Shown: in pieces, positions 16,646-41,880 of the stretch | Numbering within the stretch: position 1 is the stretch's first letter | Layout of the letters: each line of letters starts with the position of its first letter | Origin: Acidobacteriota bacterium | GTDB lineage: Bacteria > Acidobacteriota > UBA6911 > RPQK01 > JAJDTT01 | Assembly (NCBI GenBank): GCA_028874215.1 | Contig: JAPPLF010000042.1 | Span: forward strand, 82,146-146,145 | Direction of reading: 5' to 3' | DNA length: 64,000 nt | Made by a program: the position numbers and the translations under genes | The notes under the pieces: generated by a model | Seen by the model: the letters and a program-made list of their open reading frames with translations, nothing else | The model's database searches: none | Told to the model about the DNA's origin: nothing

Positions 16646-16686
16646 CAACAAATCTGTTGCCAACAAATCCGTTGGTAATGTATGAT
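16646..16686 (+). promoter_or_regulatory. Promoter inside two tandem palindromes
   Basis: Two 14-base units, CAACAAATCTGTTG at 16646-16659 and CAACAAATCCGTTG at 16661-16674, repeat with a 15-base period, and each is itself an inverted repeat. A promoter overlaps them: TTGCCA at 16657-16662, an 18-base spacer and TATGAT at 16681-16686. A repressor bound to the palindromes would cover the -35 box. This is the likely control site of the ATPase pair. Confidence 0.55.
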
Positions 16687-16708
16687 GGGTTTTGTAGAGG
16701 AACCAGAT

Positions 16709-17977
16709 ATGAAAAAACTCAAGAAGGCAGGTGGCAACTGGGTCGACGGAGATCGATTCTTCGATCGAGACGTCGAACTTGAGGCATTGAGTGAGCGTGT
16801 CAAAGAGGGAACCCACACTCTGCTGACGGCGCAGCGCCGGATGGGTAAGACGAGCCTAGTAAGGGAACTGTTACGCCAACTGGCGGATGAAGGCAGCTTC
16901 GAGACCATCTTTGTCGATCTGGAAGGCGCTAACGACTCCGCTGACGCCATCGCCGAGATTGCAATCCAGACACGATCGGTTCGGACTGTTTGGGGTCGTA
17001 TCAAGTCCGGTTTCGCGAACTTCCTGGAAGACTTTGGTGATCGAATCGAAGCCTTGGAAGTAGCCGACGTGAAGGTCAAGTTGCGCGCCGGAATCGATGC
17101 CGGAAACTGGCGCCAGCGAGGTGATCAAATCTTCACGGCACTTGCATTGAGCGAGAAACCAGTTGTGTTGGCCATCGATGAGTTGCCGATCCTAATCAAC
17201 AGACTACTCAAGGGTCAGGACTACCGGATCACGCCGGACCGGCGGGACGCGGCAGACCAGTTTTTGAGTTGGCTCCGCAAGAATGGGCAGACCCATCGGG
17301 GGCGGGTATCCATGATCGTCTCGGGCAGCGTTGGTCTTGAACCCGTTCTCAAACAAGCCGGCCTCAGCGCGCAGGCAAATATTTTTTCGCCGTTCGAGTT
17401 GAGACCTTGGAGCCGGGAAATTTCCATCAAATGCCTGGGATCGCTGGCGTATACCTACGGCTTGGACCTATCTCGTGAGGTCCGATCCGAGATGTGCCAC
17501 CGTCTCCGATGCTGTGTTCCCCACCACGTACAGCAGTTTTTCGACCATCTTCATGAACATTTGCGCCGGAATAAAAGACTCGCAGCGACACTCGCCGATG
17601 TCGGCCATGTGTATGAGCAGGATCTTCTCAGCGTCCGTGGACAAATCGATCTGGAGCACTATGAGAGCCGGCTGAGGATGATTCTGGGAACTGAAAGCTA
17701 CAAGACCGCACTCAGTCTGTTGACGGAGACAGCGGTAGGCGATGCTCTACTGAGGTGGAAATCGATCGAGAAGTATCGCGGCGGTCATTCGACAGGTTCT
17801 GGGGATTCGGTGACAATCGAAGATGTTCTGTACACCTTGGAGCATGACGGTTATCTGGCCGCCGACTCCGATGGTTATCGGTTTGTTTCGGGTCTGCTTG
17901 AAGACTGGTGGAAGGCCCGACACGGTGCGTATTTCATTCCGATCGACAGGCGAAGATCGAGACAAGAGGCGAAGTGA
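16709..17977 (+). CDS. AAA ATPase with C-terminal winged helix, unit 1
   Basis: I start this protein at the ATG at 16709, preceded by GAGGA, because the alternative ATG at 16682 lies in the -10 box. The 422 residues begin with an ATPase_2-like P-loop domain. Walker A is the atypical AQRRMGKTS (residues 41-49), Walker B is VVLAIDELP with Asp157/Glu158, and VSGSVGL follows as sensor 1. The last ~90 residues look like a winged helix (EDVLYTLEHDGYLAAD). Proteins of this type are STAND-like regulators or parts of defence and mobile modules. The stop overlaps the start of the second ATPase gene by one base, so the two are translated together. Base composition is lower in GC than the neighbours, which suggests acquisition by transfer. 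The function is not known. Confidence 0.75.
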   Translation: MKKLKKAGGNWVDGDRFFDRDVELEALSERVKEGTHTLLTAQRRMGKTSLVRELLRQLADEGSFETIFVDLEGANDSADAIAEIAIQTRSVRTVWGRIKSGFANFLEDFGDRIEALEVADVKVKLRAGIDAGNWRQRGDQIFTALALSEKPVVLAIDELPILINRLLKGQDYRITPDRRDAADQFLSWLRKNGQTHRGRVSMIVSGSVGLEPVLKQAGLSAQANIFSPFELRPWSREISIKCLGSLAYTYGLDLSREVRSEMCHRLRCCVPHHVQQFFDHLHEHLRRNKRLAATLADVGHVYEQDLLSVRGQIDLEHYESRLRMILGTESYKTALSLLTETAVGDALLRWKSIEKYRGGHSTGSGDSVTIEDVLYTLEHDGYLAADSDGYRFVSGLLEDWWKARHGAYFIPIDRRRSRQEAK

Positions 17978-20175
17978 TGAAGGCAATCACCAAGAAATAC
18001 AATCCGGGGTTTTTGACCGACGACGAACTCTTGCAATCGTTCTGTGTACGGACCGGCGAATTTGAATCGATCGTCGAAACTCTAAGCGAGAGCACCGGAA
18101 ATTCGAATCCACACATCATCGTCATCGGTCCACGTGGCAGCGGTAAGACTCACCTGTTGCTTCGAGTCGCGGTCGAGATCCGGCGAAACCCCAAGTTGGA
18201 GAGGTTTTTCCCCGTCGTATTCGCCGAGGAGAGCTACGAGGTTACGACTTGCGGCGAATTCTGGTTGGAATGCCTTGGCCGTCTTGCGGACCAGGCACCG
18301 TCCACGGATGGTGTGGATCTGCACCGTACCTACGAAGACCTGAGATCCAGTCCGGATGATTTCATTTTGTCGGAGCGTTGTCTCGGGGTGCTCTTGGATT
18401 TCGCCGACCGTCACAGCCAACGTCTGGTGCTCCTGGTCGAGAATCTGAACATGTTATTCGCGGACATGCTCGACCCGGACGCGGGATGGCGGTTGAGAAA
18501 GACGTTACAAACGGAACCACGAATTCTCTTGCTCGGAAGCGCAACCAGCCGATTCAAGGAGATCGACCATCCCGAAAATGCTCTCTACGACCTCTTTCGG
18601 ATCATCACCCTTAACCCACTCAATACCAGTGAGTGCGCAACGCTTTGGAAGACCGTTTCCGGACGATCTACTGAGTTGCGGACCATCAGGCCGCTGCAAA
18701 TTCTCACCGGCGGCAGCCCCCGATTGCTTACCATCGTCTCTTTTTTCGGGGCGGGGCAATCATTCCGTGAATTGATGGAAAACTTACTAGCACTGGTCGA
18801 CGATCACACGGAGTACTTCAAGAGTCATCTCGACTCACTGCCGGTCCAGGAACGACGGGTCTACCTGGCACTCGCGAGGCTTTGGAAGCCGTCGCTTTCC
18901 AGGGAAATCGCGGATTTGGCGCGTCTGGACACGAACCGGTGCAGCGCTTTGCTCGCACGTCTTCTACAACGTGGTGCGGTAACCGTTGAAGGAGGAACTG
19001 CCCGGCGCAAACAATACTATCTGACCGAGCGTCTATACAACATCTACTACTTGCTCCGTCGCGGTTCCGGAGCAGCGGCAATGGTGGATGCACTCATTCA
19101 ATTTATGGCTTCGTACTATTCGCCTGAAAGATTATTGGAATTAGGTAAGCGAATTGCGGCTGAGACAGGAGTTGGTGACCAGCGAGCAAGGGAACTCGCT
19201 CGGGAGGCATTCGCAAATCTACTTGACCTACCGTTGCTAAAGTCATACCGGGAAACACTCCTTACCCACGAGGATGTTGTTAGCGCATTTGGGTCATCGA
19301 GCAGCCCGGAAATAGCGCCACAAATCGCCTATGCGCTTATAGCAAAAGCTGCCAAATTAGGTCCGACGGAACCGGCACTTACCATTTATGACGATGTAAT
19401 CGATCGATTCGGTTCCTCTGAAACGTCTGAGCTCTTGCAAGTAGTGCAGTTCGCTTACGTTCTAAAGGCGGCGATTCTCATTGGAATTGGTCGTAATAGT
19501 AAGGCGGTTACGGTCTGCGACGATATTGTGAACCGATTCCGAACCCGTAGGGATCCAGCATCCTTAATATTATTGGCGATGGCATTTTTCAGCAAAGGAA
19601 GCGTGTTGCACTTGATTGGCGACGCTCCAAACGCGCTCTATGCGCTTGATCAAGCATTAGATCGGCTTAGTACAGCCGAAGCAAAGGGAATTAAGGGCCT
19701 TACCCCAATGGTTTCCAATACAATCCTAGGCAAGGGGCATGCGTATCATAAGAATAACCAACCAGGAGATGCTCTTGCTGCTTACAATGAGATCGCAACC
19801 CGATTCGGTGGAACCGACGATCCGCAGACCGCTAACGTGGTAGCAAAAGCCGTCGTAAAGAAAGTTATTCTCCAATGTGAAATGAATCGCACTGTCAGTG
19901 AAAATGAGGTCGTGATGCTGCTGGAGCACCTGCCAGCAATGGATTATCTTCCCGTAGGCTGTGTGCCTCTACTGATCCAATTTTGCGTCATGGCGGGTCC
20001 AATCCGTGCTCTTGAGTTGATCCAAGGGTCTCCGGCCTCCGATCGGTTGTTGCCCCTGGTCACCGCTTTAGAACAAATCCTTGGTCGCTCGCCTCGGGTA
20101 GCTCGGGAAGTTGAAGAGATTGCGGCTGATATACGCCAGGAACTAGAAGAAAAGATAGCTCTCGCCCGATCCTGA
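17977..20175 (+). CDS. P-loop ATPase with TPR-like repeats, unit 2
   Basis: Translation probably starts at 17977, overlapping the previous stop (GTGATGA) with GAGGCG upstream; this gives 732 residues. Walker A GPRGSGKTH is at 51-59. The Walker B strand is VLLVENLNML, with Glu155 and no preceding Asp. A winged-helix-like part follows near 300-380 (LARLLQRGAVTVEG). About residues 400-700 carry degenerate TPR repeats with recurring IYDDVIDRFG, VCDDIVNRFR and AYNEIATRFGG segments. The architecture, a switch ATPase with a helical-repeat sensor, resembles STAND/AVAST-like receptors, but no effector domain such as a nuclease is visible. An antiphage or stress-sensing role with unit 1 is a hypothesis. 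The 3' half is notably AT-rich. Confidence 0.75.
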   Translation: MKAITKKYNPGFLTDDELLQSFCVRTGEFESIVETLSESTGNSNPHIIVIGPRGSGKTHLLLRVAVEIRRNPKLERFFPVVFAEESYEVTTCGEFWLECLGRLADQAPSTDGVDLHRTYEDLRSSPDDFILSERCLGVLLDFADRHSQRLVLLVENLNMLFADMLDPDAGWRLRKTLQTEPRILLLGSATSRFKEIDHPENALYDLFRIITLNPLNTSECATLWKTVSGRSTELRTIRPLQILTGGSPRLLTIVSFFGAGQSFRELMENLLALVDDHTEYFKSHLDSLPVQERRVYLALARLWKPSLSREIADLARLDTNRCSALLARLLQRGAVTVEGGTARRKQYYLTERLYNIYYLLRRGSGAAAMVDALIQFMASYYSPERLLELGKRIAAETGVGDQRARELAREAFANLLDLPLLKSYRETLLTHEDVVSAFGSSSSPEIAPQIAYALIAKAAKLGPTEPALTIYDDVIDRFGSSETSELLQVVQFAYVLKAAILIGIGRNSKAVTVCDDIVNRFRTRRDPASLILLAMAFFSKGSVLHLIGDAPNALYALDQALDRLSTAEAKGIKGLTPMVSNTILGKGHAYHKNNQPGDALAAYNEIATRFGGTDDPQTANVVAKAVVKKVILQCEMNRTVSENEVVMLLEHLPAMDYLPVGCVPLLIQFCVMAGPIRALELIQGSPASDRLLPLVTALEQILGRSPRVAREVEEIAADIRQELEEKIALARS

Positions 20176-32693: not shown

Positions 32694-33425
32694 ATGAGCA
32701 TTCGTCATCGAATCGGATTGATGGTCCCCTCCACCAACACCACCTGCGAGGGGGACTACCAACTGGTGGCGCCCAAATCCATGACGGTTCACGGGCAACG
32801 GCTCTGGCTGACCAACGACTCCATGGGCGAAGACGGCATGGAGAGGATGAACACGGACATCGAGAGCGGCGCCCGCTACTTGTCCACGGCCCGGGTGGAC
32901 GCCATCGTCTATGCCTGCACCACCGGGAGTTTCTTCAAGGGCGCCGGCTGGGATCGGGACATGCTCGACCTCATCGAGCGAACGGCGAAGGTTCCCGCCA
33001 TCGGTACCAGTCCGGCCGTGGTCGAGGCGCTGCGCTTCATGGGCGCCCGCAAGATCTCCGTGGCCACCCCCTACCCGGATTGGAGCAACCGGAGACTCCG
33101 CACCTACCTGGAGACCGCCGGTTTCACGGTCCTCAACGTGGAGGGCGAGCCGGTGGCGGTGGGCGCCGGCCAGCAGGGGATCAACGATCAGGATCCGGAA
33201 TCGGTGGTGAGGTTCGCCTCCCAGGCCTGCCGGCCCGAGGCCGATCTGCTCTTCTGTTCCTGCACGGCCTGGCGGTCGCTGGAAGTGGTGGAGGAACTGG
33301 AACGGATCACGGGCCGTCCCGTGGTGACCTCCAACCAGTCCACGATCTGGGCCTGCTTCCGGAAGCTGGGACTGACCGGCCCCATCGAAGGGTACGGCAG
33401 TCTGCTTCGGCGGATGGATCACTGA
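32694..33425 (+). CDS. Maleate isomerase/Asp-Glu racemase-family enzyme
   Basis: The 243-residue protein matches the maleate cis-trans isomerase branch of the Asp/Glu racemase superfamily. Two Cys-centred catalytic motifs are present: YACTTGSF with Cys75, and LLFCSCTAWRS with Cys190 (Cys188 nearby). VPSTNTTCEGD at the N-terminus binds a carboxylate in this family. It may isomerise, racemise or decarboxylate a dicarboxylic acid. It sits 79 bases before an enolase-superfamily gene, and together they could convert a substituted dicarboxylate. The ribosome site is AGGAG at a slightly long spacing. Confidence 0.85.
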   Translation: MSIRHRIGLMVPSTNTTCEGDYQLVAPKSMTVHGQRLWLTNDSMGEDGMERMNTDIESGARYLSTARVDAIVYACTTGSFFKGAGWDRDMLDLIERTAKVPAIGTSPAVVEALRFMGARKISVATPYPDWSNRRLRTYLETAGFTVLNVEGEPVAVGAGQQGINDQDPESVVRFASQACRPEADLLFCSCTAWRSLEVVEELERITGRPVVTSNQSTIWACFRKLGLTGPIEGYGSLLRRMDH

Positions 33426-33504
33426 ACCGGTCGTTCGCCCGGACCGCGTAAGCCCTTCTCGGACCGGTGTTCCGCTCCGGACCATTCGGTATATCCTGGG
33501 ACCC

Positions 33505-34626
33505 ATGAGAATCGATGCCATCGAAGTGGTCCACGTGGCCATGCCGCTCATCTATCCCTGGCGGACCGCCTACGGTGAGGATGCGTCCGTTCAGTCGGTC
33601 CTGGTCCGGATGGAGTCGCAGGGGCTGGCGGCCTGGAGCGAGGCGGCTCCACTGGCCGCTCCCCAGTACCTGCCGGAATGGGCGGGAGGCGTCTTCGCCT
33701 GCATCCGGGACTGGTTAGCCCCGATCCTGGTGGGACAGGAGATCGCCAGCGGGGAGGAACTTCAGGCCCGGCTTGCCTTCGTCAAGGGAAACTCGTTTGC
33801 CAAGGGCGGCCTGGACAGTGCCTGGTGGGTGCTGGAGGCCATGCGCCGGGGAGTACCGCTCTACCGGCTCCTGGGAGGACGGCGTTCGCAGGTCGACGTG
33901 GGAGCCGACTTCGGAATCATGGACTCGGTGGACGATCTGTTGGTTGCCATCGACCGGGCTGTGGTGGCGGGTTTCAAGCGCACCAAGCTCAAGTACGGGC
34001 CGGGATGGGATCTGCCCATGTTGAAAGTGGTCAGGAAGAACTTTCCCGATCACACCTTCCACATCGACTGCAACAGCGGCTACCGGCTCTCGGACCTGAA
34101 GATGTTCCGGGAGATCGACCAGTTGGGCCTGGCCATGATCGAGCAGCCGCTGCAGTACAACGACTTGGCGGACCACGCCCGGCTCCAGGAGGAGCTGCAA
34201 ACGCCCGTCTGCCTGGATGAGAGCGTGACCTCCCCCGACAAGGCCCGGAAGGCCATCGAAATGGGAAGTTGCCGGATCGTCAACATCAAGACCTGCCGGG
34301 TCGGAGGACTGACGCCGGCCCTGGAAATCCACAACCGGTGCCAAGAGGCAGGGATCCCCTGCTGGATCGGGTCCATGTTGGAGAGCGCCGTGGGCGTGCG
34401 GGTCAACCTGGCCCTGTCCACGTTGGAGAACTTCACCTACCCCGCCGACCTTTTTCCCACCAGCCGTTTCTACCGGAAGGACCTGGGCCGTCCCGAAGTG
34501 TTCCTGGATCAGGGGCCTTCAGGCGAACCGGTCATGAGCCTGTCGGAGGAGCCGGGCCACGGAACCGAGCCGGATCCGGCCATGCTGGAGGAGTGTACGG
34601 TCGCCCGCGCGACGATCACGGCGTGA
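33505..34626 (+). CDS. Enolase-superfamily enzyme (OSBS/NAAAR-like)
   Basis: The 373-residue protein has the muconate-lactonising subgroup layout. Lys161 and Lys163 occur in KRTKLKYG, metal ligands are Asp188 (HIDCNSGY), Glu213 (MIEQPL) and Asp238 (CLDES), and the second base Lys262 is in IKTCRVGG. The KxK...K pattern fits o-succinylbenzoate synthase or N-acylamino acid racemase, and the N-terminal SEAAPLAAPQYLPEW loop matches that branch. No menaquinone genes are nearby, so racemisation or epimerisation of an N-acyl amino acid or syn-elimination is more likely than OSBS. The previous gene is a maleate-isomerase-like enzyme in the same direction. Confidence 0.87.
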   Translation: MRIDAIEVVHVAMPLIYPWRTAYGEDASVQSVLVRMESQGLAAWSEAAPLAAPQYLPEWAGGVFACIRDWLAPILVGQEIASGEELQARLAFVKGNSFAKGGLDSAWWVLEAMRRGVPLYRLLGGRRSQVDVGADFGIMDSVDDLLVAIDRAVVAGFKRTKLKYGPGWDLPMLKVVRKNFPDHTFHIDCNSGYRLSDLKMFREIDQLGLAMIEQPLQYNDLADHARLQEELQTPVCLDESVTSPDKARKAIEMGSCRIVNIKTCRVGGLTPALEIHNRCQEAGIPCWIGSMLESAVGVRVNLALSTLENFTYPADLFPTSRFYRKDLGRPEVFLDQGPSGEPVMSLSEEPGHGTEPDPAMLEECTVARATITA

Positions 34627-36840: not shown

Positions 36841-38589
36841 ATGAGACGCTCCGGACCGCCCCCTCGCAGGGGCGTTCGCTACGAACCTCCCGAGAAGCCA
36901 CCGCACCTGCTCTCCCTGGGACTCGGCCTTCAGCTCGTGATGCTGAACATCAGCGGAATCGTGCTGATCCCCAAGATCATCATCGAAGCCGCGGCCGTCG
37001 GCGAGGTCTACCTTTCCTGGGCCGTCTTCGCCGGACTCTGCGTCTGCGGCCTGATCACCGTCATCCAGGCGGTTCGGGTCGGCAACATGGGAGCGGGGTA
37101 CATCCTCCTGATGGGGACCTCCGGCACCTTTGTCGCCGTGTCGATTACGGCTCTGGTGGAGGGGGGACCGGCTCTACTGGCCACCTTGATCGTGGTTTCG
37201 TCCCTGTTCCAGTTCGTCTTGGGCTCGCGTCTCGTACTGCTGAGACGGGTGATTACGCCGTTGGTGGCGGGGACGGTCATCATGCTGGTAGCGGTCACCA
37301 TCATGCCCATTGCCTTCAACATGTTGTCCCGGCCGCCGGAAGGAACTCCGCCGGCTGCCGCCCCCGTCAGTTTCGCGGTGACCCTCCTCGCCATGGCGGG
37401 TCTAGCCCTCTTCGCAGCGGGCGCTTGGCGGCTCTGGGGCCCGGTCTTGGGCGTGATCGCGGGTTGCAGCGTAGCGGGGTACTATGGGATCTACGACACT
37501 GCCCGAGTCGTCTCCGCCCCTTGGTTCGGGCTGCCGCCCATCGGGTGGCCCGGGTTCGACCTGAGTTTCGGCTCGTCGTTCTGGGCTTTGCTCCCGGTAT
37601 TCATATTCGTGGTGGCCATCGATACCGTGAGGACCGTAGGCGGCTCCATCAGCATCCAGCAGGTGTCCTGGCGGCAGCCGCGAGCGACCGATTTTCGGTC
37701 GGTGCAGGGCACCATCGGTGCAAGCGGCCTGTCCAACCTCCTTTCCGGACTGGTGGGGACGTTGCCCAACACCACCTACTCCTCCAGCATCTCGGTGGCC
37801 GCGCTCACGGGTGTGGCGGCCCGCAACGTGGGGGTCTGCGTCGGGATCCTCATCATCGTCTTCTCCTTCATTCCCAAAGCGACGGCGGTGATCCTGGCGA
37901 TTCCCAATCCGGTCGTTGCGGCCTACATCGTCGTGCTCATCTCGCTGCTGTTCGTCGTTGGAACGCGGATCGTGGTCCGGGACGGCCTGGACAGTCGCAA
38001 GAGCATCGTGGTCGGCGTCGCGTTCTGGTTGGGCGTCGGTTTCCAGAACCGGCAGATTTTCTCGGAACACCTGGGAGATGCGGCGGCGTCGATTATGGAG
38101 AACGGGATCGCCGCCGGTGGACTGGCCGCGATCGTGATGACAGTCGCCCTGGAACTGTCCAAGCCCCGGCGGAGGAAGATCAAGACGAAGCTGGGTCTGG
38201 AGTCGTTGGCGGAGGTCGACGAGTTCGTTCAGCGATTCGCCAAGGACAAGCATTGGAACGCGACCTCAACGGGACGACTGCGCGCGGCGACGGAGGAGGC
38301 GATCCTGAGCTTGGTTCCGTATGAGAGGGATACGGAGCCGGAAGACGCGCGGAACCTGGTCCTGTCGATGGGAGGTGACGGCCGGAAGGCGGAATTGGAG
38401 TTTATTGCCGCAGCGGGGGAGGGTAATCTTGAAGATAAATTGGCGCTGTTGGGACAATGGGCGGAACAGTCGAGCGATCGCGAATTCTCGCTCCGGCTGC
38501 TCCGCCACTTCGCCACCTCCGTGAATCACCGTCAGTATCACGACACCGACGTCGTGACGATCCGTGTAGACGCGGACAAGGAATCATGA
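36841..38589 (+). CDS. NCS2 (UraA-like) permease with extra C-terminal domain, copy 1
   Basis: The ATG at 36841 is the likely start of a 582-residue protein; a frame opening at 36676 would cover the operator. About residues 20-440 are NCS2 nucleobase permease with some 12-14 membrane helices. The TM10 signature reads TLPNTTYSSSIS, with Ser where UraA has the substrate-binding Glu, and TM8 has AIDTVRTVGG. The last ~130 residues are soluble. They have a LRAATEEAILSLV helix followed by beta strands and a final RLLRHFATSVNHRQY helix, reminiscent of a GHKL/anti-sigma HATPase fold without the usual ATP-binding Asn and DxGxG. It would import a purine, pyrimidine or related acid, perhaps coupled to signalling. 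A paralogue follows. Confidence 0.85.
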   Translation: MRRSGPPPRRGVRYEPPEKPPHLLSLGLGLQLVMLNISGIVLIPKIIIEAAAVGEVYLSWAVFAGLCVCGLITVIQAVRVGNMGAGYILLMGTSGTFVAVSITALVEGGPALLATLIVVSSLFQFVLGSRLVLLRRVITPLVAGTVIMLVAVTIMPIAFNMLSRPPEGTPPAAAPVSFAVTLLAMAGLALFAAGAWRLWGPVLGVIAGCSVAGYYGIYDTARVVSAPWFGLPPIGWPGFDLSFGSSFWALLPVFIFVVAIDTVRTVGGSISIQQVSWRQPRATDFRSVQGTIGASGLSNLLSGLVGTLPNTTYSSSISVAALTGVAARNVGVCVGILIIVFSFIPKATAVILAIPNPVVAAYIVVLISLLFVVGTRIVVRDGLDSRKSIVVGVAFWLGVGFQNRQIFSEHLGDAAASIMENGIAAGGLAAIVMTVALELSKPRRRKIKTKLGLESLAEVDEFVQRFAKDKHWNATSTGRLRAATEEAILSLVPYERDTEPEDARNLVLSMGGDGRKAELEFIAAAGEGNLEDKLALLGQWAEQSSDREFSLRLLRHFATSVNHRQYHDTDVVTIRVDADKES

Positions 38590-38680
38590 CGCGCAGGCTG
38601 ACGGGCGGCCCGGGAATCGGTCAGCTCCTATTTCGGAAACGAACCGGCAACGACGGGTTGCGACAAACAGGGATATATTT

Positions 38681-40441
38681 ATGAAGCCATCCGCTCCAGC
38701 TCTTCAGAAAGATCTTCGTTACGAACCCAACGAACGGCCCCCGAACCTGCTCTCCCTGGGACTCGGATTTCAGCTTGTCCTGCTCACTATCGGCGGGATC
38801 GTCCTGACTCCGGCGATCATCATTCGCGCGGCCGGCGGGGAGGACGCCTACATGACCTGGGCCGTCTTCGCCGGGCTCTGCGTCTGCGGCGTGTCCACGA
38901 TCCTCCAGGCCGTCCGCGTCGGACGGTTCGGTTCCGGCTACGTCCTCCTGATGGGAACCTCCGGCGTCTTCATCGCCGTGTCGGTGACGGCGCTGACGGA
39001 TGGGGGACCCGGACTGCTGGCGACCTTGGTGGTCGTCTCGTCCATATTTCAATTTGTTCTGGCGTCGCACCTGTCTTTGCTGCGTAGGGTCATTACGCCG
39101 TTGGTGGCGGGGACCGTGATCATGCTGATCTCGGTGACCATCATGCCCATCGCCTTCAACCTGGTGGCCGACGCGGCGGAAGGGGCGGCCTCCACGGGTG
39201 CGCCTGTAAGCGCGGCGGCGACCCTCGTCTTCACGGCAGGTCTGGCCCTCTTCTCCAAGGGCAGCTTGCGGCTCTGGGCACCCGTTCTGGGTGTTACCAT
39301 CGGTTGCATCGTCGCCTCTTTCTACGGTCTCTACGACGTCGCTCGAGTCGCCGACGCTGCTTGGTTCGGAATGCCCACGAGCGGTTGGCCCGGTCTCGAC
39401 CTGACGTTCGGCGCCCCATTCTGGACCTTGCTCCCGGTCTTCGTTCTGGTGACCGTGGTAGGCGCCATCGAAACCGTCGGCGACGCCATCGGAATCCAGC
39501 AGGTCTCATGGCGGAGGCCGCGGGCGACCGACTTTCGCGCGGTGCAGGGGGCCGTCGGAGCGGACGGCGTGGGCAATCTCCTGTCGGGCCTGATGGGGAC
39601 CGTGCCCAATACGACCTACTCCACCAGCGTCGCCGTCACCGAGCTGACCGGCGTCGCCGCGCGCTCCGTGGGGGTCTGCATCGGAATCCTCTTCTTCTCC
39701 TTTGCCTTCCTTCCCAAAGTGACGGCGGTGATCCTGGCGATTCCGGACCCGGTGGTGGCGGCTTACATCCTGGTGCTGATGGCCGTCCTGTTTGTCCTGG
39801 GCATGAGGATCGTGGCGCAGGACGGCCTCGACAGCCGCAAGAGCGTGGTCGTCGGGCTGTCTTTCTGGCTGGGCGTCGGCTTTCAGAATCAGCAGATTTT
39901 CGCGGACTACATGGACGGCACCCTGGCGACCATCCTGGGGAACGGCATGGCGGCCGGCGGATTGGCCGCGATCGTGATGACGGTGGCTCTGGACCTGGCC
40001 AAGCCGAGAAGGAGGCGGGTCAAGGCCATGCTCAGCCTCGATTCGCTGCCGGAGATCGACGGGTTCATCTGCAAGTTCGCCGCCGCCAAGGATTGGAACG
40101 AGGCGTCAACGGAGCGGCTCCGGGCCGCCGCGGAGGAATCGGTCCTGAGTCTGATTCCGGAGGGGGAGGCGTCTGAAGCGGCAGAGGCCCGGCACCTGTT
40201 GCTCCTGGTCCGCGGGGACGGCCGCGGGGCGGAGTTGGAATTCATCGCCTCGGCAGTGGAGGGGAATCTCGAGGACCGTCTGGCGCTCCTGGGCCAGTGG
40301 GCGAGGCGATCGGTCGACCGCGAGTTCTCGCTGCGGCTGCTCCGCCACTACGCCAGTTCGGTGCGCCACCGGCAGTACCACGACACCGACGTCGTGACGG
40401 TGCGAGTCGACGCGGACGCCCCGGTGAAGAGCGGGGGGTGA
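38681..40441 (+). CDS. NCS2 (UraA-like) permease with extra C-terminal domain, copy 2
   Basis: This 586-residue protein is closely similar to the preceding permease along its whole length, including the C-terminal soluble domain, so the pair arose by tandem duplication. The TM10 motif is VPNTTYSTSVAV, again without the UraA Glu. TM8 reads AIETVGD and keeps the acidic residue that became Asp in copy 1, so the two copies may differ in substrate or coupling. The soluble tail has LRAAAEESVLSLIP and RLLRHYASSVRHRQY. The spacing of 91 bases and the weak ribosome site suggest co-transcription with copy 1 at lower translation. Confidence 0.85.
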   Translation: MKPSAPALQKDLRYEPNERPPNLLSLGLGFQLVLLTIGGIVLTPAIIIRAAGGEDAYMTWAVFAGLCVCGVSTILQAVRVGRFGSGYVLLMGTSGVFIAVSVTALTDGGPGLLATLVVVSSIFQFVLASHLSLLRRVITPLVAGTVIMLISVTIMPIAFNLVADAAEGAASTGAPVSAAATLVFTAGLALFSKGSLRLWAPVLGVTIGCIVASFYGLYDVARVADAAWFGMPTSGWPGLDLTFGAPFWTLLPVFVLVTVVGAIETVGDAIGIQQVSWRRPRATDFRAVQGAVGADGVGNLLSGLMGTVPNTTYSTSVAVTELTGVAARSVGVCIGILFFSFAFLPKVTAVILAIPDPVVAAYILVLMAVLFVLGMRIVAQDGLDSRKSVVVGLSFWLGVGFQNQQIFADYMDGTLATILGNGMAAGGLAAIVMTVALDLAKPRRRRVKAMLSLDSLPEIDGFICKFAAAKDWNEASTERLRAAAEESVLSLIPEGEASEAAEARHLLLLVRGDGRGAELEFIASAVEGNLEDRLALLGQWARRSVDREFSLRLLRHYASSVRHRQYHDTDVVTVRVDADAPVKSGG

Positions 40442-40720: not shown

Positions 40721-41284
40721 ATGAATAGAACGTCCGGACCGACGACGCAGGCCGGCAAATTCCGTATTGAGGGTCTTGTGGGTCTTTCTAGAGCCGCGGA
40801 AAACTTTCTTCACGGCCACCCACGGGAAGCCCGTATGGTCGTGAGTGTTGCTCTGGAAACTGCCGCCGCCCAACGGGATGCGTATGGGCGTAGGGCCGTC
40901 GTCAACGTTCCCGGTCGACTTGAGCCTTTCATCGTTCGCCGGCGCATGAGCCCGGATATGATCGGGGTTTCAACAGCCGCAAAACGCCTGAAGGTTTCGC
41001 GCACGACGATCTATGCGTGGGTGGAACAAAAAACGCTGCTCGCCTGGAAGTCAACAAAGCGTGGTCTGACAATTCCGGCCGCGCAGATTCTTGGCCCGGG
41101 GAAGGTGGTTCCGGGACTCGCCAGGGTTATGGGTATCATTGAAGATCCCGAATTAGCTTGGGAGTTTTTGACCCAGGAATGGCCTTTTTCCGACCGTGTC
41201 GCGCGTCCTCTTGAGGAATTGATGGCAGGGCGGATAGAGGATGTCGTAGACGCAGCACCCGGCTTCGGTACGGACTTCACTTGA
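40721..41284 (+). CDS. Xre/MbcA/ParS-type antitoxin of RES toxin
   Basis: The 187-residue protein has an N-terminal part of unclear role, a helix-turn-helix at about 83-115 (VSTAAKRLKVSRTTIYAWV) and a C-terminal MbcA/ParS-like toxin-binding region (about 128-180, ending in an ELMAGR segment). This is the antitoxin layout of RES-Xre modules, where the antitoxin caps the toxin active site and represses the operon. A GGGAAGG ribosome site precedes the ATG. Its stop overlaps the toxin's TTG start by four bases, so antitoxin translation leads toxin translation. GC content is lower than in the flanking genes, consistent with mobility. Confidence 0.88.
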   Translation: MNRTSGPTTQAGKFRIEGLVGLSRAAENFLHGHPREARMVVSVALETAAAQRDAYGRRAVVNVPGRLEPFIVRRRMSPDMIGVSTAAKRLKVSRTTIYAWVEQKTLLAWKSTKRGLTIPAAQILGPGKVVPGLARVMGIIEDPELAWEFLTQEWPFSDRVARPLEELMAGRIEDVVDAAPGFGTDFT

Positions 41285-41880
41285 ACCGACCCGCCTATCC
41301 GCGCGACCGGATCGAAGCTGTACTTTTCAGGGCGAAGCTGCCACCCAGCTATCGGATCGTACCTGGCCGCTATGTGGCGTCACCGATGGGCACCGCGTCG
41401 GCCGACTCCCGATTTTGCTCCAAGACTGGAGTCTATACGATGCTCTATGCCTCGCCCGACTTTGCTACCTCATTCATCGAAACGGTTGTGCGGGATCGAT
41501 TCGTGCGACGGCGAAGGCGTGAGATCCTCCTCAAGGAAGTGACCGAACGAGTTTGGGCCTCGATTGCGACGAAACCGAGAATAGGACTGACGCTGCTTGA
41601 TCTTCGTCATGATGGGTGCATCTTGATCGGTGCACAGACCGACACGGTAAATGCCCGCAATCATGCTGCCGGCCGCGCCTTTGGGAAGGCGATTTATTCC
41701 GATCATGACGACATCGACGGCTTGGTATACGCGTTCCGTTTGACTGGTAGTGACGTCTACGCTGTGTTCGACCGCGCAGTAGGCAAGCTTGAACTGACGG
41801 CTTCAGGACTGCTGCCGGATCACCCGGAACTGCCGGATGTGTTGGGGAAACATGGCATCGGCTTGGTCCTTGAACGGTAG
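41281..41880 (+). CDS. RES-domain toxin
   Basis: This 199-residue protein has the RES fold, an ART-related domain that breaks down NAD+ and stops growth in known members. The conserved Arg is visible in LFRAK (Arg17), the Tyr in LYASPDFATSF, and the Glu in FIETV (Glu67). A strand with LLDLRHDG and a final AGLLL-type end fit the family. Translation starts at TTG overlapping the antitoxin stop, which keeps the toxin level low. Length is normal for the family and the reading frame is intact. Confidence 0.87.
   Translation: MNRPAYPRDRIEAVLFRAKLPPSYRIVPGRYVASPMGTASADSRFCSKTGVYTMLYASPDFATSFIETVVRDRFVRRRRREILLKEVTERVWASIATKPRIGLTLLDLRHDGCILIGAQTDTVNARNHAAGRAFGKAIYSDHDDIDGLVYAFRLTGSDVYAVFDRAVGKLELTASGLLPDHPELPDVLGKHGIGLVLER

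What the first reader, a model, noticed from the sequence alone, without database searches (positions are those of the whole stretch)
36841..40441. Tandem NCS2 permeases fused to a degenerate GHKL-like domain
Both copies carry ~130 extra soluble residues with the helix-strand order of an anti-sigma/HATPase domain (ATEEAILSLV helix, final RLLRHFATSVNHRQY helix). They lack the usual Asn of the N-box and the DxGxG loop. UraA's TM10 Glu is also Ser/Thr in both. A transporter fused to an inactive kinase-like module could be a transceptor that senses substrate and binds a signalling partner.
Basis: inference. Interest (0 to 1): 0.6.

Follow-up and report, generated by a model that had tools for sequence, protein, structure and literature searches.

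The report
Permeases with dead anti-sigma-kinase tails
Two neighbouring bacterial genes encode uracil/xanthine-type membrane permeases whose inner-side tail has the fold of an anti-sigma-factor kinase that has lost its ATP site; the architecture is widespread, and in some bacteria the gene sits beside the tail's expected signalling partner, so these permeases may be regulated by, or report to, a known bacterial signalling switch.

Summary
Window 36841-38589 and 38681-40441 encode two NCS2 (PF00860) permeases, 66% identical, each with a ~140-aa cytoplasmic tail. The tail, modelled alone without templates (pLDDT 83), matches RsbW/SpoIIAB/UsfX anti-sigma factors: the top 19 PDB hits are all of that class, VIA Z 15.0 over 114 of 115 RsbW residues. 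The ATP motifs (N-box Asn, DxGxG, G2 Gly) are lost across the family, while dN/dS of 0.09-0.2 shows the tail is maintained. The TM10 Glu is Ser/Thr in both copies. The family spans Acidobacteriota, Gemmatimonadota, Chloroflexota, Pseudomonadota and Binatia (up to 12 copies per genome), with membrane-anchored stand-alone tails. In a second clade of tailed NCS2 permeases, an RsbV-like STAS gene and an intact RsbW-like gene follow at 24 of 30 loci; one genus of the window's own clade has STAS two genes downstream in 11 of 11 genomes. Best reading: a permease with a pseudokinase RsbW module that binds a STAS partner. Direction of control is untested.

The parts
36841..38589 (+). NCS2-type permease with RsbW-like tail, copy 1 (582 aa)
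   Evidence: PF00860 E 1e-42; AF2 model of the whole protein, TM part like UapA/UraA
38681..40441 (+). NCS2-type permease with RsbW-like tail, copy 2 (586 aa, 66% identical to copy 1)
   Evidence: PF00860 E 1.5e-48
38167..38586 (+). C-terminal RsbW-like degenerate GHKL domain of copy 1 (residues 443-582)
   Evidence: PF13581 E 0.0029, below cut-off; AF2 model pLDDT 83; Foldseek/VIA to RsbW, SpoIIAB, UsfX
40007..40438 (+). C-terminal RsbW-like degenerate GHKL domain of copy 2 (residues 443-586)
   Evidence: aligned with copy 1 tail, 65% identical
38293..38298 (+). Glu485-Glu486 of copy 1: N-box Glu kept in 100 of 100 members; Asn at +4 is Ser490
40133..40138 (+). Glu485-Glu486 of copy 2, as above
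38494..38550 (+). RLLRHFATSVNHRQYHDTD, family signature at the place of the G2 helix and last strands (copy 1)
   Evidence: conservation
40334..40390 (+). RLLRHYASSVRHRQYHDTD, same signature (copy 2)
37630..37632 (+). TM8 substrate-site codon of copy 1: Arg264 in place of the NCS2 Glu
39470..39472 (+). TM8 substrate-site codon of copy 2: Glu264 kept
37783..37785 (+). TM10 position of UraA Glu290 / UapA Gln408: Ser315 in copy 1
39623..39625 (+). TM10 position of UraA Glu290 / UapA Gln408: Thr315 in copy 2

Best explanation
These are UraA-fold (SLC23-like) membrane transporters whose C-terminus is a cytoplasmic pseudokinase of the RsbW/SpoIIAB type. The tail cannot bind ATP in the usual way; it keeps the RsbW fold as a docking module, most likely for a STAS-domain protein (the normal partner of RsbW), and that binding is coupled to the permease. 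Shown: the predicted fold, loss of the ATP motifs, purifying selection, family spread, and linkage of tailed permeases to STAS genes, and to an intact RsbW-like gene in one clade. Inferred: that the tail binds STAS, that phosphorylation of STAS by a real RsbW switches the binding, that binding gates transport, and that the two window copies use a STAS protein encoded elsewhere in the genome.
For: Tail model matches only anti-sigma factors in its top 19 PDB hits (best 1.8e-8) and RsbW at Z 15.0, 2.2 A over 114 residues. PF13581 matches 11 of 20 tails, best 2.6e-5. Group II tails against real RsbW-like proteins: hhalign 87%, E 3.8e-6 over 128 columns; against group I tails 66%, E 5.5e-5; shuffled controls 0.03 or worse. 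Group I against RsbW-like: 48%, E 1.9e-4. ATP motifs lost across 100 members; dN/dS 0.09-0.2. STAS plus RsbW-like gene directly downstream of the tailed permease at 24 of 30 loci, permeases down to 66% identical (Pfam for one of them). STAS two genes downstream in 11 of 11 genomes of one Acidobacteriota genus; STAS just upstream in L191. Chance of three such lineages about 0.0015 by a rough Poisson estimate.
Against: No STAS gene beside the window's own copies; most group I loci have none within about 5 kb. In the L186 cluster the STAS-RsbW pair follows a gap of 157 bp and could have its own promoter. No complex was modelled and no binding measured. The strongly conserved HRQYHDTD motif could instead make a ligand or metal site.
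Confidence: 0.6

Rival explanations
1. Transceptor: the permease senses substrate and its tail captures or releases a STAS protein, so that sigma-factor or other RsbW-controlled output follows substrate supply.
For: Linkage to STAS plus intact RsbW-like gene; substrate-site acids replaced in many members.
Against: TM fold intact and substrate site diversified rather than uniformly dead; up to 12 paralogues per genome, some next to other transporters and catabolic genes, suggest uptake; no sigma factor linked.
Confidence: 0.2
2. The tail is only a structural module (dimerisation, folding or stability of the permease), as proposed for the STAS domain of SulP proteins, with no signalling partner.
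For: Most group I loci lack STAS genes; RsbW-type proteins dimerise (established knowledge); the STAS domain of SulP is reported to be needed for stability and function (PMC8256260).
Against: Stand-alone membrane-anchored tails exist without the permease; recurrent STAS linkage.
Confidence: 0.2
3. The tail became a small-molecule or metal sensor: the ATP pocket was replaced by a site built from the conserved Glu485, Glu486, His556, His563, Gln565, His567 and Asp570, giving feedback control of transport.
For: These residues are nearly invariant in 46 tails while ATP motifs are lost.
Against: Group II tails lack the HRQYHDTD motif though they share the architecture; the geometry could not be inspected.
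Confidence: 0.15

Closest known systems
NCS2 / NAT (SLC23) permeases: UraA, UapA, XanQ, PbuX
   Same: PF00860 core and UraA-like 14-TM fold
   Different: RsbW-like tail; TM10 Glu/Gln and Asn-x-Gly lost; TM8 Glu often Arg, Lys, Asp or Gln; scores below NCBIfam cut-offs for pbuX and ncs2
RsbW / SpoIIAB / UsfX anti-sigma factor kinases
   Same: Fold and topology, Z 15.0; N-box Glu kept
   Different: Fused to a permease; no Asn, DxGxG or G2 Gly motifs, so no canonical ATP site; sigma binding untested
SulP / SLC26 transporters with C-terminal STAS domain
   Same: UraA-fold transporter with a cytoplasmic domain taken from the partner-switching toolkit
   Different: SulP carries the STAS partner; here the permease carries the RsbW partner of the same pair
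Partner-switching operons (rsbV-rsbW, spoIIAA-spoIIAB)
   Same: STAS plus HATPase_c_2 genes beside the tailed permease in clade II
   Different: A transporter with a second, dead RsbW copy is part of the cluster; no sigma gene linked

Membership tests
NCS2/NAT permeases | PF00860 domain over cut-off | tested here: met
   146.7 and 165.9 bits, cut-off 27
NCS2/NAT permeases | UraA-type fold | tested here: met
   Foldseek to UapA 7.2e-16 and UraA 1.5e-14
NCS2/NAT permeases | TM10 signature [QEP]-N-x-G-x4-T-[RKG] | tested here: not met
   S-S-I-S and T-S-V-A in place of Q-N-N-G; final T-G kept
NCS2/NAT permeases | NCBIfam ncs2 superfamily cut-off | tested here: not met
   174.3 and 191.4 bits, cut-off 291.8
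RsbW-type anti-sigma kinases (HATPase_c_2) | Bergerat/RsbW fold | tested here: met
   predicted fold only
RsbW-type anti-sigma kinases (HATPase_c_2) | PF13581 at gathering score | tested here: not met
   window copy 1 tail 18 bits; 21.2 for L064 and 23.6 for the group II protein L192; cut-off 27.4
RsbW-type anti-sigma kinases (HATPase_c_2) | N-box Asn, DxGxG, G2 Gly motifs | tested here: not met
RsbW-type anti-sigma kinases (HATPase_c_2) | binds STAS or sigma factor | not testable with these tools
   only genetic linkage to STAS
SulP transporters | C-terminal STAS domain | tested here: not met
   tail has the RsbW fold, no STAS hit

The most novel reading that the evidence does not exclude
A partner-switching circuit in which the dead RsbW tail of a permease and a true RsbW kinase compete for one STAS protein, so that substrate transport and STAS phosphorylation control each other; the UraA-fold superfamily would then have recruited both halves of the RsbV/RsbW pair, STAS in SulP and RsbW in these permeases.
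Probability: 0.3. Interest if true: 0.8.

Novelty: new variant of a known kind. Interest (0 to 1): 0.62.

Why it matters
Such genes are likely to be read as xanthine/uracil permeases; a published comparison of Gemmatimonadota reports more xanP in marine genomes (PMC11596202), and this family may contribute to that count, although its substrate-site residues argue against xanthine as a general substrate. If the tail binds STAS, this links nutrient uptake directly to the best-known bacterial partner switch and would bear on why SulP transporters carry a STAS domain, a role the review PMC8256260 calls not fully explored. The three-gene cluster in Pseudomonadota makes the question testable.

Tried and rejected
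Sequence search of the tail profile against PDB gave nothing useful; only group II tails and structure made the link firm. Plasmid search with copy 2 found only tail-less NCS2 among the rows listed, but with the group II protein it found full-length tailed relatives. No Rfam element near the genes. No paper on an NCS2-RsbW fusion in the searches made. The tree could not tell one fusion from two: groups I, II and the few tail-less rows are each one side of a branch. The hhalign of group I tails against RsbW alone is modest (48%). A first tail alignment (A4) was discarded because one row seemed misframed. Adjacency to STAS within 1.5 kb was absent in 6 of 30 loci.

Full report
Check of the observation. 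The window carries two tandem + strand genes, 36841-38589 (582 aa) and 38681-40441 (586 aa), 66% identical. Both hit PF00860 strongly but fall under the NCBIfam cut-offs for xanthine permease and for the ncs2 superfamily. The first 440 residues model as a UraA/UapA-like 14-TM core; residues 443 onward are a separate soluble domain after a basic PRRRR/PRRRK linker. The tandem pair is conserved in two related genomes (L004, L005).

The tail. Pfam gave only a sub-threshold HATPase_c_2 match (0.0029 for copy 1; 11 of 20 homologous tails, best 2.6e-5). AlphaFold2 on the tail alone, from 46 family members and no templates, gave pLDDT 83 with a core above 90. Foldseek's first 19 PDB hits are all anti-sigma factors (UsfX, SpoIIAB, RsbW; best 1.8e-8). 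VIA-align gives RsbW 6m37_C at Z 15.0, rmsd 2.2, 114 of 115 residues, and the RsbW class stands clear of histidine kinases, at Z about 7. Profile comparison to 24 real RsbW-like proteins from related genomes gives E 1.9e-4 against 0.11 or worse for shuffled controls.

Degeneracy. Real RsbW-like proteins keep Glu...Asn, DxGxG and GxG. In the tails the Glu is invariant (Glu486, 100 of 100), the Asn position is mostly Ser, Thr, Ile or Leu, the Asp and Gly loops are gone, and the G2 helix reads SLRLLRHxASS. A new signature, RLLRHxASSVxHxQYHDTDxVTVxV, is nearly invariant. dN/dS in the tail is 0.09-0.2 between species, as in the TM part, so it is maintained, not decaying.

Substrate site. Copy 1 also has Arg264 where NCS2 has the TM8 Glu; copy 2 keeps it. 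Over 100 members TM8 is E 41, R 20, D 17, K 10, Q 8, N 2. This looks like a family that has spread over different substrates, some probably anionic (inference).

Family and surroundings. Full-length relatives occur in Acidobacteriota, Gemmatimonadota, Alpha- and Gammaproteobacteria, Binatia and Chloroflexi MAGs. Several MAG names point to marine-sponge datasets, and several Candidatus Palauibacter species names to sponges and corals (for the names; the reading is from my own knowledge). Copies reach 10 in Chloroflexota and 12 in Gemmatimonadota genomes, with 29 of 301 and 33 of 200 genomes positive. Neighbours vary: TRAP operons with the permease between DctM and DctP (L059; same order by sequence in L088), DctP beside a group II permease in L188, polyketide synthase genes directly upstream of Gemmatimonadota copies with TM8 Arg (L016, L017, L018), Liv-type ABC ATPases. 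The tail also exists alone behind a single hydrophobic helix, next to an Nramp-like transporter (L095) or at the end of an asd-dapB-dapA-dapD cluster (L096) (dap names by eye, not by Pfam).

Second clade (group II). NCS2 proteins that NCBI calls 'solute carrier family 23 protein' (Azospirillum, Thiodictyon, Pseudoroseomonas plasmids) and relatives in Acidobacteriota and in the phylum of the Binatia genome have a similar degenerate tail. Their tail profile matches RsbW-like proteins over 128 columns (87%, E 3.8e-6) and group I tails (66%, E 5.5e-5); one member hits PF13581 at 5.5e-5 across the whole domain. Groups I and II are each one side of a branch in the permease tree; the tree does not say whether the fusion happened once or twice.

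Partners. In relatives of one Pseudomonadota genome, 24 of 30 group II loci have an RsbV-like STAS gene and then an RsbW-like HATPase_c_2 gene on the same strand right after the tailed permease (Pfam for the L186 copy). That STAS is the only hit in G1047 in a short (162-codon) open frame, the other two lying in frames over 400 codons. In L191 a STAS gene ends 11 bp before the permease. In group I, 11 of 11 genomes of one Acidobacteriota genus have HMGL-NCS2tail-GPP34-STAS. The window genome has STAS and RsbW genes, but none on the window's contig.

Mechanism. The simplest account is a transporter with a dead RsbW module that docks STAS. In the linked clade a true RsbW can phosphorylate STAS and so decide whether it sits on the permease. 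Whether STAS gates transport, or the permease reports substrate through STAS, cannot be told from sequence. This mirrors SulP, where the same transporter fold carries STAS itself (PMC8256260).

Verdict. Observation confirmed, fold claim confirmed and sharpened, transceptor claim open. Architecture not found in the literature searched; new variant of a known kind.

Noticed in passing
window 16682-20175: Low-GC stretch (0.543 against about 0.64) with two adjacent ORFs that look like AAA/STAND-type ATPases by their P-loop-like segments (431 and 755 aa), possibly a mobile or defence island.
   Followed up: no
window 40721-41880: HTH gene followed by a RES-domain gene, a Xre/RES-type toxin-antitoxin pair just downstream of the permeases.
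   Followed up: partly
window 32694-34626: Arylmalonate decarboxylase / Asp-Glu racemase family gene followed by a mandelate racemase (enolase superfamily) gene upstream of the permeases, suggesting organic-acid catabolism.
   Followed up: partly
L096:173-685 (-), L094:2261-2767 (-), L093:4841-5452 (+): Stand-alone single-TM proteins carrying only the RsbW-like tail; matches in open frames of about 225 aa recur in Gemmatimonadota.
   Followed up: partly
L188:4864-7590: TRAP solute-binding protein DctP directly upstream of a tailed NCS2 permease with no DctQ/DctM seen in the stretch read: possibly an NCS2 permease fed by a binding protein.
   Followed up: no
L016, L017, L018: Tailed permeases with TM8 Arg directly downstream of type I polyketide synthase genes.
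   Followed up: no
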